Below, piece after piece: positions 5,014 through 43,102 of a DNA stretch of 44,053 nt. The notes under the pieces are model-generated. The model was given only the letters and a program-made list of their open reading frames with translations. It searched no databases and had not been told where the DNA came from. A program made the translations under genes and the position numbers. Within the stretch, counting starts at the first letter, position 1. Each line of letters begins with the position of its first letter. Source of the stretch: a virus; the IMG/VR virus record IMGVR_UViG_3300015373_000011, positions 1 to 44,053 of that record, one strand, 5' to 3'.

Positions 5014-5460
5014 TTAACGTATATAAACAGGTGTCCCTACAGGCACTTTTTCGTATAGCTCAAGCACATCTTCTGTAGCCATACGGATACAGCCATGAGA
5101 GGCGTCAGTACCGAGCGAATCGATGCTGCGAGTGCCGTGAATACCGATCCCATTCCAGAGCTTGATGAAGGCACCCGTAAGAGGATTGTTTAGATCGCCA
5201 GGAGGAAATCTCTGACCCTTCATCTCGTCAGGAACCCAGTCTGAGTTAGGAGCCTGCCACCACGGGTCCTTCGCCTTGGAAGACACCACATACATTCCAG
5301 GAGGAGTACGATGTCCAACCGCTCCAACAGCAATGTCGCGTTTAAATTTGACGGAGAACTTCGAAGACCAGGGACGACGCCGATACAAAGTTAATGTGTG
5401 ACGATCCCTGTCTACCATTACAAAACTACGTGTACCAGTTAATATAGCCATAGTTTCCAT
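5014..5460 (-). CDS. L,D-transpeptidase (YkuD domain)
   Basis: 148 residues, essentially a bare YkuD catalytic domain. YkuD enzymes make 3-3 cross-links in peptidoglycan or attach proteins to it, using an active-site Cys. The signature is complete: GIGIHGTRSIDSLG with His at about 108, then ASHGCIRM with Cys at about 124 and an Arg two residues later; TPPGMYVV and a substrate-loop region precede it. No signal peptide or membrane segment is visible, so release into the wall would need a membrane lesion or packaging in the virion. The start at 5460 has only a weak GTAGG; a second in-frame ATG lies three codons later. Neighbours are membrane proteins. The family call is firm, the role in infection open. 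Confidence 0.9.
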   Translation of the reverse strand: METMAILTGTRSFVMVDRDRHTLTLYRRRPWSSKFSVKFKRDIAVGAVGHRTPPGMYVVSSKAKDPWWQAPNSDWVPDEMKGQRFPPGDLNNPLTGAFIKLWNGIGIHGTRSIDSLGTDASHGCIRMATEDVLELYEKVPVGTPVYIR

Positions 5461-34101: not shown

Positions 34102-34130
34102 TTGTTATGGACTTGACAAGTTGGTAAGAT
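34102..34130 (+). promoter_or_regulatory. Putative promoter for the 66-residue HTH protein
   Basis: TTGTTA (34102-34107), 17-base spacer, TAAGAT (34125-34130) preceded by TGG. An overlapping perfect TTGACA at 34113 lacks a partner at normal spacing. Only five bases separate it from the divergent virion promoter's -35. Confidence 0.45.
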
Positions 34131-34158
34131 GGTCCCACGACACGACAAGGGAGGCTCC

Positions 34159-34359
34159 ATGAACTGGGACTTCGAAAACGAGCTAGAGGTTGTAGCGACA
34201 CTTAGCGAAGAGGCTCGAAAGGCCTCAATCGAGATGACCGAGACCTATGAGCGGCTGACTGCTGAAGTGGGCAAGCTGGCTGCTCAGGGCGTTAGCATTG
34301 ACGCTCTCTCGGCGGCTACAGGACTCTCGCCGGAAGCGATCAAGCTTCTTCAAAAGTAA
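34159..34359 (+). CDS. Small HTH-like regulatory protein
   Basis: 66 residues. ATG at 34159 with GGGAGG six bases upstream; an earlier in-frame start at 34129 is less likely. N-terminal acidic helix (FENELEVVATLSEEARKAS), a second helix, then a C-terminal helix-turn-helix-like segment (AAQGVSIDALSAATGLSPEA). Encoded divergently from the virion operon and just upstream of a candidate small RNA. A role in switching virion transcription is a natural guess, but no family was recognised. Confidence 0.7.
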   Translation: MNWDFENELEVVATLSEEARKASIEMTETYERLTAEVGKLAAQGVSIDALSAATGLSPEAIKLLQK

Positions 34360-34385
34360 AACCCGCAAATAGCATAAAAAATGCC

Positions 34386-34415
34386 TTGACATCGGTGAGG
34401 CCGATGTGCTACAGT
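34386..34415 (+). promoter_or_regulatory. Strong promoter of a candidate small RNA
   Basis: Perfect TTGACA (34386-34391), 18-base spacer, TACAGT (34410-34415) preceded by GTGC, i.e. GTGCTACAGT. Best match to a housekeeping-sigma promoter in the window; it also carries the GTGCTANNNT element seen elsewhere. Transcription would start near 34422. Confidence 0.7.
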
Positions 34416-34421
34416 GGATAC

Positions 34422-34545
34422 CTTCGTTGTGTGGCCGAACAGCAGGTAAGGTCCGGTGGAGGCAGATAGCTGTTTTCGAACTGCCGGGTGCCACAAAGCA
34501 TCGTCGTGTCGCTACAAGGAGGACCGCACCGCGCGGTCCTTTTTG
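34422..34545 (+). ncRNA. Candidate structured small RNA, about 124 bases
   Basis: Bounded by a strong promoter and a perfect intrinsic terminator, without a good ORF. Pairings: TGTGGC (34430-34435) with GCCACA (34490-34495); inside it GGCAG (34461-34465) with CTGCC (34481-34485), while CAGC (34440-34443) could pair with GCTG (34469-34472) in the loop, giving a pseudoknot. AAGGAGGA (34516-34523) at the terminator would bind the 16S anti-Shine-Dalgarno sequence but has no start codon after it. A tRNA-like T-loop (TTTTCGAA) is present without a full tRNA fold. No known RNA family was recognised. It lies antisense to nothing coding, ending 5 bases before the convergent lipoprotein stop. Confidence 0.6.
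34520..34545 (+). terminator. Intrinsic terminator of the small RNA
   Basis: AGGACCGC (34520-34527), loop ACCGC, GCGGTCCT (34533-34540), then TTTTTG. On the minus strand the same stem follows the lipoprotein stop but without a T-run, so it mainly acts rightward. Confidence 0.85.
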
Positions 34546-34549
34546 TGCT

Positions 34550-35941
34550 TTAGGGCTGAATAGCCCGCAGCTTGGTCCAGTCAACATTTAGGCTAGGAGA
34601 ATTCAGCCTTAATACGTATCGACCAGCACTATTCTTTGGCAAGTTGTTAGCTGCTGCCCAGCCAACCCAAGGATTGGTCTTCCCAAGGGAGTCATAGGTA
34701 TAGCTGCCTTCCAACGCTGCTTGTAGCCCGAAGTCAGCCGGTCCACCCGTATCGCCAAAATACATACCGTAATCCTTGAGTGCCTGGATGAATGGCCTTG
34801 CATAAGCTGGCAGTGCAGCAATCTGAGCATCCGTGTAAGCTAGGTAAAAGCGCTGCCCTAGTGGAGGAGCATTAGATTTGTCAGTTCCACAAATTGAACC
34901 TGCTCCATTAGTAGTTAACCAACTTACGTGGCTGCCATTCGAACAAGGAACGGTCATAAATAGTGCATGCCTGATTGGAGGCTGCGTTACTTCTATAGCC
35001 CGAACTTGGCCCGCCATTAATGCGAAGTTGGCTACAGTCGCCGTGCCGGTCGCGGTAATACTGCCCGTACCGTTCTCAACGTCCGTTTTTGCACCACAGT
35101 CAGCCGCGACGGTACCCGGCGAACCGCTATTAATAGAACGACCCTGGTAGAAGTCGTATTCCATAATTTGACCAGCGGAATTGCGTGGCTGCGTAACACT
35201 GAAATGTCCGTCCCACCAGCTTGCCCCGTTATTCCAGCCGCCTGAAGGTAGAGCGCCCTTTGGAATTCTGATTACGTCATTCTCGCCACTAGTACACCAG
35301 CTATTGTTAAACGCTACCTTGTATTGTGGATCAGTGGTACTCGCGTGATAACGTGCGTGAGACACTTCACCAGCAGGATCATCAATCACTAATGCTCCTG
35401 GGCCGTTGGTGCTAGAACTTCCAGCTAGTACATGATTGACTATATTTTGACCATTAGGACTGCTCGTTGGGTTCGATCCAACTGGCTTGTTAAATTGCGA
35501 TGACGCTGAATATGGTCGCCAGCTAGAGGACTCGTATTGAGGCTCGTTTTGCGGCGGTGCTGTAGTGTCGAAAGTGCTGAGTGCTCCATCGCTCCTCTGG
35601 AAACAGAACTCTTGAGTATCAGGGCTTTTGGTCCCACATATCACGTAAGAGTAATGTGATGAGGGTTGAAGGTTGCTAGCCGTATCTGCTAGAGTGGCGT
35701 TTCCGCTGTTGGGACAATTCCAAGGGTTGGTCTGGGTTTTATTCCAAACACTGAAGGGTTGACCCGGATCAAGCGTAAAGCGGAAAAACCAAGAGCCATT
35801 TTCACCAGCCTGACAAGTAGTGTCGGCACGAAGCAGCGCCGAATCGTGGTCTACGTTTGTTGCGCCAGGGTTAGTGTTGGCTGTGCATCCGGCTAGAATA
35901 ACTACGATTAGTGCTAGTAATGTAATTGCAATCCGTTGCAT
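34550..35941 (-). CDS. Secreted lipoprotein with glycan-enzyme-like domain
   Basis: 463 residues. Lipoprotein signal peptide: MQRIAITLLALIVVILAGC with the lipidated Cys at 19. A linker and a fibronectin-like segment (about 45-125, with two Cys-containing strands) precede a large domain with RHALFMTVPCSNGSH, QRFYLAYTDAQIAALPAYA and IQALKDYGMYFGDTGGPADF. The last pattern (later residues: ALQDYG-[AM]Y-x-x-D) is known from actinobacterial secreted proteins thought to act on or bind polysaccharides. Several Cys may form disulfides outside the cell. A TTG-free TAAACT hexamer lies 6 bases before the ATG and no ribosome site is seen, so it may be leaderless. A phage-encoded surface lipoprotein suggests superinfection exclusion or host conversion. 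Confidence 0.8.
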   Translation of the reverse strand: MQRIAITLLALIVVILAGCTANTNPGATNVDHDSALLRADTTCQAGENGSWFFRFTLDPGQPFSVWNKTQTNPWNCPNSGNATLADTASNLQPSSHYSYVICGTKSPDTQEFCFQRSDGALSTFDTTAPPQNEPQYESSSWRPYSASSQFNKPVGSNPTSSPNGQNIVNHVLAGSSSTNGPGALVIDDPAGEVSHARYHASTTDPQYKVAFNNSWCTSGENDVIRIPKGALPSGGWNNGASWWDGHFSVTQPRNSAGQIMEYDFYQGRSINSGSPGTVAADCGAKTDVENGTGSITATGTATVANFALMAGQVRAIEVTQPPIRHALFMTVPCSNGSHVSWLTTNGAGSICGTDKSNAPPLGQRFYLAYTDAQIAALPAYARPFIQALKDYGMYFGDTGGPADFGLQAALEGSYTYDSLGKTNPWVGWAAANNLPKNSAGRYVLRLNSPSLNVDWTKLRAIQP

Positions 35942-35964
35942 AACAATAGTTTAACACATAATAT
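35936..35964 (+). promoter_or_regulatory. Putative promoter for the small basic protein
   Basis: TTGCAT (35936-35941), 17-base spacer, TAATAT (35959-35964). Divergent from, and overlapping, the start of the lipoprotein gene. The transcript would begin about 15 bases before the leader ORF. Confidence 0.4.
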
Positions 35965-35985
35965 ACACAAAGGAGGTGAAGCCCT

Positions 35986-36000
35986 ATGACAGCCCGTTAG
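35986..36000 (+). CDS. Five-codon leader ORF (MTAR)
   Basis: ATG-ACA-GCC-CGT-TAG with its own strong AAAGGAGGTGA upstream, ending one base before a second AAAGGAGGT that serves the next gene. The arrangement looks like a translated leader that delivers ribosomes to, or controls access to, the second site. A tiny ORF could be chance, but two consecutive near-perfect ribosome sites are unusual. Confidence 0.5.
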   Translation: MTAR

Positions 36001-36014
36001 AAAGGAGGTCATAG

Positions 36015-36176
36015 ATGGCTAACCCGGCTACGTCCGGTCCTCTGTTCACCGATCTGGTGACGGGACGCTGGAACGGCAAGCGCCGTCCCTACATGGACTG
36101 TCTCGGCAATACTTACAAGACCCTGCCTAACGGCCGCGAAAAGCGCGGCGGTAAGCGCACCAAGGGTTCTAAATAG
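36015..36176 (+). CDS. Small basic protein, 53 residues
   Basis: Not recognised. AAAGGAGGT five bases before the ATG. Begins MANPATSGPLFTDLVTGRWN and is very basic at the end (GREKRGGKRTKGSK), as in nucleic-acid-binding or host-takeover peptides. GC-rich codons unlike the flanking minus-strand genes. It stands alone on the plus strand and its last 8 bases overlap the stop of the convergent gene at 36169. High expression is likely from its ribosome site. Confidence 0.7.
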   Translation: MANPATSGPLFTDLVTGRWNGKRRPYMDCLGNTYKTLPNGREKRGGKRTKGSK

Positions 36177-36315
36177 TTATATAACGAATTGCGCCCTCTT
36201 CCCATCCTTCGCATCCGTCACAAAAGGGATGCAGACATGGTAGGAGGGCGTAGTCTCTTTCGTGCCAATGGAGTGCGTGGCCGCACACACAAAGAGAAAG
36301 AGGTATTTCCGTCAT
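36169..36315 (-). CDS. Small zinc-binding protein, 48 residues
   Basis: ATG at 36315 overlaps the stop of the LuxR-type gene (ATGA). Cys/His ladder LSLCVCGHALHWHE, then LLPCLHPFCDGCEGW: a C-x-CGH-x(4)-H ... C-x(4)-C-x-x-C arrangement, common among small actinobacterial zinc proteins. Probably co-translated with the LuxR-type regulator and perhaps works with it. An alternative longer frame from 36396 overlaps that gene fully and is less likely. Confidence 0.65.
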   Translation of the reverse strand: MTEIPLSLCVCGHALHWHERDYALLPCLHPFCDGCEGWEEGAIRYITI

Positions 36316-39064: not shown

Positions 39065-39079
39065 TCCTCGTCATTTTAA

Positions 39080-39328
39080 CTATATTTCTATTGTTTCTGG
39101 CTCAATCTCTTCGATTTCAGGCAATTTCTGTTCGACCTTACCCGGCCAGCCAACAAATGTGATACATCCATCAGTTGCGGTATAGCTAACGCCCATGTGA
39201 CCCGCAACTATGTTGCTGCCCGTTGTATATACTCCCGATGCAATCGTTATCTTAGCCCCGTTTGGGCTATGAAAGATCACATCGTTGCCATCACCGATGA
39301 CAGACACGGTTTCTAGTTTTTGCATCAT
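39080..39328 (-). CDS. Small beta-rich protein with ETIEI tail
   Basis: 82-83 residues; start uncertain (ATGs at 39328 and 39325, a GTG at 39343, none with a clear ribosome site). Regular strands VSVIGDGNDVIFHSPNGAK, SGVYTTGSNIVAGHMGVSY suggest a small beta sandwich or pectate-like coil. Ends IEEIEPETIEI, the tail also found at the ends of three unrelated-looking genes here. Function unknown. Confidence 0.65.
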   Translation of the reverse strand: MMQKLETVSVIGDGNDVIFHSPNGAKITIASGVYTTGSNIVAGHMGVSYTATDGCITFVGWPGKVEQKLPEIEEIEPETIEI

Positions 39329-42313: not shown

Positions 42314-42869
42314 GGGACCGAAAAGGTAGGCACCTGCCCGAGCTATGATGAATCATGCGTATGCACGCATGCGGTGCGTCGAGCCTTAACAGGCCGGACC
42401 TAACGCAATGCGAAGCGCGCAGGGGTGACACATGCCCTGATTCTATGCCCGCATAACCCCTTTGTACGCTTGCCCGTGTGTTGCGTAACGGCTGCTGCCG
42501 TGCGGATAGCTGAGAGCTTAGGGGAGGGACTTCCGATCCCGAGTAACGACCGCTGGACGCAAACGGGGCGCGCGTATGCACGCATCCGAAAGCACCGCAG
42601 TACCGATGCGCGGAGGGTATCCGATGCGCTGAGGGAGCCAGTGTGGGGAAGGTGTATGCACGCATACTCGGTATGCACGCATGCCCTGGGACCGCCAGCG
42701 GGTAAAAAATCCACGGAACGTTTGCGTGACCGTGCGGGGGCGACGTAAGGGCCTTGCGCTGCGAGCTTATGCCCAGCCAACCTACTCGCCCGAATCCACC
42801 CTCGCACGGTGCGCTTACGCCAGCACCCCTCAGCGAACCGATAACCCCTGCAACAAAAGGAGAAATTCG
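42314..42869. other. GC-rich stretch without a clear gene
   Basis: About 550 bases, visibly GC-richer than the rest, containing four of the five TATGCACGCAT copies and several CGATGCG/GCGCATG-like words. Open frames here on both strands look like chance frames in GC-rich DNA. Probably regulatory, upstream of the plus-strand small genes. Confidence 0.5.
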
Positions 42870-43102
42870 ATGAGCCGCTACACGAACGCGGAGCGCATGG
42901 CGCTCACCCCCTACGAGGATGTCACCCTCGACGTGGACGCAGAGTACGACTTCGATTGGGAGTCGTGGGAGAAGGCCGAGCAGGAGCAGGCCAAGCAGGA
43001 CCACGGCCGTAAGGCCGAGCCGCAGGACTAGCCTCACCTAGCCCCACCCTGTAGGGTGCTGACGTAAGCGTGCAAACAATCGAACAGGAGGTATGCACGC
43101 AT
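42360..43102 (+). repeat. TATGCACGCAT repeat, five copies
   Basis: Exact copies at 42360-42370, 42575-42585, 42655-42665, 42672-42682 and 43092-43102. The first is part of a CATGCGT-ATGC-ACGCATG inverted repeat (42354-42371); the last lies between a ribosome site and start codon. Irregular spacing suggests binding sites for a phage protein. Confidence 0.8.
42870..43031 (+). CDS. Small acidic protein, 53 residues
   Basis: ATG with AAAGGAG eight bases upstream. Begins MSRYTNAERMALTPYEDVTL and continues acidic and helical (DAEYDFDWESWEKAEQEQAK). GC-rich, host-like codon use. First of a run of plus-strand small genes resembling those in terminal repeats of large Streptomyces phages, often expressed first after infection. 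Function unknown. Confidence 0.75.
   Translation: MSRYTNAERMALTPYEDVTLDVDAEYDFDWESWEKAEQEQAKQDHGRKAEPQD

What the first reader, a model, noticed from the sequence alone, without database searches (positions are those of the whole stretch)
34386..34545. Candidate new structured small RNA between the virion and lipoprotein units
A near-consensus promoter, about 124 untranslated bases with nested pairings and a possible pseudoknot, and a perfect terminator. It also contains AAGGAGGA, complementary to the 16S 3' end, with no start codon after it. It sits at the control point of the virion operon. No known RNA family was recognised.
Basis: partly seen in the sequence, partly recalled or inferred. 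Interest (0 to 1): 0.75.

Follow-up and report, generated by a model that had tools for sequence, protein, structure and literature searches.

The report
Phage antisense RNA beside regulator gene
In an uncultivated bacterial virus, a short stretch with its own promoter and terminator probably makes a small RNA that can pair with, and so silence, the start of the neighbouring gene for a small DNA-binding protein; it is a predicted addition to a known kind of control, found so far in this one virus only.

Summary
The promoter (TTGACA-N18-TACAGT, 34386-34415), the terminator (34516-34544), the named stems, and AAGGAGGA without a start codon are all in the sequence. The claim of strong structure is not supported: the body folds no better than shuffles (z +0.8), and a pseudoknot can be drawn but not shown. 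No homologue was found in Rfam, phages, plasmids, IMG/VR patterns or 17 related contigs, so covariation cannot be tested; in relatives the same slot holds other cargo. The new result: the RNA's 3' half (34467-34511) is a collinear imperfect antisense of the ribosome-binding region of the upstream gene P0001, a 66-aa helix-turn-helix protein. It gives 35 Watson-Crick matches across -21 to +27, including a perfect 9-mer directly upstream of the Shine-Dalgarno. A shuffled RNA does as well in 5 of 40,000 cases, no random genome segment in 2,000 does, and P0001 is the best of 51 start regions. Best explanation: an antisense sRNA that silences P0001; read-through P0001 mRNA carries the same element in its 3' UTR. 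An operator-like dyad lies between the RNA's -35 and -10. Expression, operator binding and function are inferred, not shown. New variant of a known kind, moderate interest.

The parts
34102..34130 (+). candidate promoter of P0001 (TTGTTA-N17-TAAGAT; a TTGACA also lies at 34113-34118); start near 34137
   Evidence: read from the sequence; weak consensus, start site inferred
34138..34146 (+). CGACACGAC in the P0001 leader, perfect 9-nt complement of the RNA linker, directly 5' of the Shine-Dalgarno
34147..34154 (+). Shine-Dalgarno of P0001 (AAGGGAGG)
   Evidence: sequence
34159..34359 (+). P0001: 66-aa protein, long helix plus C-terminal helix-turn-helix; proposed target
   Evidence: syntenic homologues
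34138..34185 (+). target region on P0001 mRNA (-21 to +27), collinear imperfect complement of RNA 34467-34511
34190..34201 (+). second complementary site in P0001 (12 nt, to RNA 34506-34517)
34386..34415 (+). promoter of the RNA, TTGACA-N18-TACAGT with TG before the -10
34389..34407 (+). perfect dyad ACATCGG-N5-CCGATGT between -35 and -10, operator-like
   Evidence: protein not identified
34420..34546 (+). predicted small RNA
   Evidence: promoter and terminator; no expression data
34430..34495 (+). possible closing stem 34430-34435/34490-34495 around pseudoknot stems 34438-34443/34469-34474 and 34461-34465/34481-34485
   Evidence: not supported by folding energy
34467..34511 (+). antisense segment; its end 34503-34511 (GUCGUGUCG) lies in the linker left single-stranded in the pseudoknot model
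34516..34544 (+). intrinsic terminator; its 5' arm contains AAGGAGGA; also the first terminator after P0001

Best explanation
The element is a small-RNA gene (promoter 34386-34415, RNA about 34420-34546, intrinsic terminator) whose RNA acts as an antisense regulator of the gene just upstream on the same strand, P0001, a small helix-turn-helix protein. The exposed linker GUCGUGUCG (34503-34511) pairs with CGACACGAC (34138-34146), directly 5' of the P0001 Shine-Dalgarno. The duplex can then extend over the Shine-Dalgarno, the start codon and codons 1-9 (RNA 34467-34511 with mRNA 34138-34185), which would block 30S binding. P0001 has no terminator before the RNA, so a read-through P0001 mRNA carries the same element in its 3' UTR and could also be controlled by it. 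The dyad between -35 and -10 suggests that a repressor, possibly but not demonstrably P0001, controls RNA synthesis. Shown by computation: promoter and terminator signals, the dyad, the complementarity and its rarity. Inferred: transcription, silencing, operator use, and any effect on the virion operon.
For: Antisense match of 35 Watson-Crick pairs, collinear over -21 to +27 of P0001: 0/2000 dinucleotide shuffles and 0/2000 genome segments reach it in three scoring schemes, 5/40,000 shuffles in the larger run. It is the top gapped match of the RNA body to the rest of the window. P0001's start region ranks first of 51 in an accessibility-weighted scan, -11.7 against -8.8 kcal/mol; 0/400 shuffles and 2/1473 genome segments match it. 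A 12-nt exact complement lies in the same gene (shuffles 1/1000). Promoter, dyad and terminator frame the RNA. P0001 models as a helix-turn-helix protein with pLDDT 90 and keeps its place in relatives.
Against: No homologue of the RNA in any collection or relative, so no selection on the pairing can be shown. Net energy after opening both partners is only about -10 kcal/mol. The start region finds a slightly better antisense partner by chance elsewhere, score 31 against 27 at about 19.5 kb. Relatives keep P0001 without such an RNA. The promoter is a single site where 0.8 is expected. No expression data. Fold-back of the read-through mRNA is no better than with random 3' segments.
Confidence: 0.48

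Rival explanations
1. The stretch is only the long 3' UTR and terminator of P0001, and the promoter match is chance. The 3' UTR may control its own mRNA by pairing with the start region in cis, as in staphylococcal icaR; no separate small RNA is made.
For: No terminator between the P0001 stop and 34516, while most relatives show a terminator-like hairpin soon after the stop; promoter count in the window is what chance gives; in the folded read-through mRNA 34138-34146 pairs with 34503-34511 at probability near 1.
Against: An exact TTGACA with TG-TACAGT and a perfect dyad in its spacer, placed just upstream of a terminator-closed non-coding stretch, is unlikely to be idle; leader-3' UTR pairing of this size appears with 105 of 300 random 3' segments, so cis folding is not evidence.
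Confidence: 0.2
2. A structured RNA that acts through its fold (pseudoknot), for example on a host protein or on host RNAs, with the P0001 match accidental.
For: An enclosed 6/6/5-bp pseudoknot arrangement occurs in 0.2% of shuffles; phage RNAs acting on the host are known (PMC12197685).
Against: Body folding energy is no better than shuffles (z +0.8). No covariation set exists, and there is no Rfam match even at E 10 apart from a spurious lncRNA hit.
Confidence: 0.13
3. A decayed inverted copy of the P0001 5' end, left when the lipoprotein cargo was inserted or rearranged; no function, the complementarity being only a scar.
For: The match is an imperfect inverted repeat in DNA and on the - strand it keeps the in-frame codons TTC GAA AAC behind an ATG (sequence); the slot is a cargo site in relatives.
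Against: Promoter, dyad and terminator would not be expected in a scar; no protein similarity of the stretch to other phage proteins beyond chance.
Confidence: 0.14

Closest known systems
icaR mRNA 3' UTR-5' UTR pairing, Staphylococcus aureus (PMC3868564)
   Same: A long 3' UTR of a repressor mRNA pairs with the Shine-Dalgarno region of the same mRNA; the target is a small regulator gene.
   Different: icaR has no sRNA promoter in the 3' UTR as described there; its motif is UCCCCUG against the Shine-Dalgarno, here the contact is just upstream of it and continues over the start codon. icaR is proven by experiment.
OppZ and CarZ autoregulatory 3'-end sRNAs, Vibrio cholerae (PMC7398697; review PMC9438474)
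   Same: The sRNA shares the terminator of its own target mRNA and represses that mRNA by base pairing.
   Different: OppZ is cut out by RNase E and needs Hfq; here a separate promoter is predicted and no cleavage or chaperone is known.
Phage antisense RNAs: lambda OOP (cII), P22 sar (ant), P1/P7 c4 (review PMC12197685)
   Same: A short phage RNA with antisense action on a phage regulator.
   Different: OOP and sar come from the opposite strand of their target with full complementarity; this RNA comes from the same strand, 260 bases downstream of the target start, with imperfect complementarity. No sequence relation.
Non-coding RNAs of mycobacteriophages L5, D29 and StarStuff (PMC5712189)
   Same: Phage RNAs without conserved open reading frames, one in an intergenic region.
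   Different: Those were seen by RNA-seq and Northern blot and have no known target; the present one is predicted only. No DNA match in the phage collection.

Membership tests
Any Rfam 15 family | score above the family's gathering cut-off | tested here: not met
   no family; best sub-threshold hit is an unrelated human lncRNA region, E 3.1
Structured RNA class with conserved fold | fold more stable than shuffles, or covariation | tested here: not met
   body z +0.81; covariation could not be tested because no homologue was found
Independent sRNA gene | own promoter and intrinsic terminator, no coding frame between | tested here: met
   (signals only)
Independent sRNA gene | discrete transcript | not testable with these tools
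   no RNA data for this virus
Antisense base-pairing sRNA | complementarity to a translation start beyond chance | tested here: met
Antisense base-pairing sRNA | repression lost and restored by compensatory mutations | not testable with these tools
   needs experiment
Opposite-strand cis-antisense RNA (OOP or sar type) | transcribed from the strand opposite its target, fully complementary | tested here: not met
   P0001 and the RNA are both on the + strand; 35 matches, 8 mismatches, 3 gaps
icaR-type 3' UTR control | the target's own 3' UTR contains the antisense element | tested here: met
   no terminator between the P0001 stop (34359) and 34516
icaR-type 3' UTR control | 5'-3' pairing in the folded mRNA beyond chance | tested here: inconclusive
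   pairing probability near 1, but 105 of 300 random 3' segments pair as many bases

The most novel reading that the evidence does not exclude
A phage sRNA gene born by inverted duplication of its target's ribosome-binding region. It forms a mutual-repression switch with the helix-turn-helix protein P0001: the RNA silences P0001, and P0001 binds the dyad inside the RNA's promoter. P0001 in turn sets the timing of the virion operon.
Probability: 0.1. Interest if true: 0.62.

Novelty: new variant of a known kind. Interest (0 to 1): 0.4.

Why it matters
If true, it adds a compact form of phage gene control: a same-strand, adjacent antisense RNA that doubles as the 3' UTR of its target, next to the virion operon of a phage family for which no cultured member was found here. 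It would also be a possible case of a bacterial antisense RNA arising by inverted duplication of its target. The prediction is exact enough to test with a reporter in a laboratory strain.

Tried and rejected
Rfam at gathering and E 10. DNA search of phages and plasmids. A single-sequence covariance model found nothing convincing on the related contigs; a second hit in the window at 39160-39076 (18.6 bits, E 0.04) lies inside a coding frame without terminator and was set aside as chance or coding similarity. tRNA- or tmRNA-like arms (TTCGAA, CTGCC, GCCACA): no ARAGORN or Rfam hit and no likeness to the phage's own tRNAs. Decayed coding gene: no protein similarity. AAGGAGGA as a live ribosome site: no start codon, inside the terminator stem. 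Riboswitch or attenuator leader: no co-directional gene follows the terminator. Prophage or host search by capsid and lipoprotein in genome contigs: nothing; for the second I used an alignment with one altered copy of the window fragment, only to loosen the search pattern. Fold-back of the 3' UTR as independent evidence was rejected after the control. Plain duplex energies without accessibility do not single out P0001.

Full report
What is in the sequence. The window is an IMG/VR virus record without close cultured relatives. At 34386-34415 there is TTGACA-N18-TACAGT with a TG before the second hexamer, the only TTGACA-N16-18-TANNNT site in 44 kb (0.8 expected). Between the hexamers lies a perfect 7+7 inverted repeat, ACATCGG-tgagg-CCGATGT (34389-34407), with no other copy in the window at two mismatches or fewer. 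The RNA would run from about 34420 to 34546 and ends in a clear intrinsic terminator (34516-34544; segment z -4.5). AAGGAGGA is part of that hairpin.

Structure. The body without the terminator, however, folds slightly worse than its own dinucleotide shuffles (z +0.81). The enclosed pseudoknot geometry is rare in shuffles (0.2%) but was chosen after seeing it. So 'structured' is not established. No Rfam family matches.

Relatives. Through an alignment of the phage helicase, then of the capsid protein and the zinc-ribbon protein I found 17 related contigs, capsid identity about 39-72%. The nearer ones share, next to the virion operon, the order LuxR-type gene (-), cargo slot, P0001 (+), zinc-ribbon gene (-), protease (-), capsid (-). 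P0001 is a 66-aa protein whose model (pLDDT 90) is one long helix and a C-terminal helix-turn-helix; family and fold hits are weak. The slot is empty in one relative (L108); in others it holds different genes, such as secreted proteins. Neither the RNA nor the lipoprotein was found in any relative tested. Covariation therefore cannot be tested, and the RNA is an orphan as far as these collections go.

Target. Looking for complementarity, the only exact match of 11 nt or more anywhere in the window was RNA 34506-34517 to the P0001 coding region 34190-34201. An accessibility-weighted scan then put the P0001 leader first among 51 start regions: RNA 34503-34511 with 34138-34146, nine Watson-Crick pairs ending directly before the Shine-Dalgarno, -11.7 kcal/mol against -8.8 for the next. 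None of 400 shuffled bodies and 2 of 1473 genome segments did as well. A gapped search showed that this 9-mer is the end of a longer collinear antisense match: RNA 34467-34511 against P0001 mRNA 34138-34185, 35 Watson-Crick matches, 8 mismatches, 3 gaps, spanning -21 to +27. It is matched by 0 of 2000 shuffles and 0 of 2000 genome segments in each of three scorings, and by 5 of 40,000 shuffles. The RNA's top gapped match in the rest of the window thus falls on the start region of its immediate co-directional neighbour, in antisense.

Controls that cut the other way. The start region itself has a slightly better antisense partner by chance elsewhere. The net energy after opening both partners is modest, about -10 kcal/mol. 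Fold-back of the whole read-through mRNA on its leader, though predicted with probability near 1, is no better than for random 3' segments. Of random segments, 3% find some start region as good. Relatives lack any such complementarity.

Mechanism. Most likely the RNA is an antisense regulator of P0001: the linker makes first contact beside the Shine-Dalgarno and pairing extends over the start. P0001 has no terminator before 34516, while most relatives show a terminator-like hairpin soon after the stop, so long P0001 transcripts would carry the element as their 3' UTR and could be controlled in cis. The dyad in the promoter spacer implies a repressor of the RNA; P0001 is a candidate only because it is the nearest DNA-binding protein, and the same dyad is not found at its own promoter. 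Effects on the virion operon are a further inference from P0001's conserved place.

Comparison. It works like icaR 3' UTR-5' UTR pairing (PMC3868564) and like the autoregulatory 3'-end sRNAs OppZ and CarZ (PMC7398697, PMC9438474), but with a predicted promoter of its own. Among phage antisense RNAs (OOP, sar, c4; review PMC12197685) it differs by lying on the same strand downstream of its target with imperfect complementarity. It is filed as a new variant of a known kind, unproven.

Noticed in passing
42360-43102: Five exact copies of TATGCACGCAT (0.03 expected) in a stretch of 61% G+C with reversed AT skew, against about 49% elsewhere; none in the other loci fetched. Possibly a replication or regulatory region, or a junction of different origin.
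   Followed up: partly
34360-36311: In this phage family the slot between the LuxR-type gene and P0001 is a cargo site: here a lipoprotein, in relatives secreted proteins that look wall-related by eye, a LamG-like protein by eye, or nothing.
   Followed up: partly
5014-5460: The phage encodes an L,D-transpeptidase (YkuD domain, E 1e-24), unusual cargo for a virus.
   Followed up: no
34113-34123: ACTTGACAAGT, a palindrome over a TTGACA near the P0001 start; relative L113 has CAGCTTGACAAGCTG at the same place, a possible autoregulatory operator of P0001.
   Followed up: no
39076-39160: Minus-strand coding sequence near the 3' end of an 87-codon frame resembles the RNA's 5' half (ACATTTGTTGGCTGGCCG..GGTAAGGTC; 18.6 bits, E 0.04); the frames read TFVVWP and TFVGWP.
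   Followed up: partly
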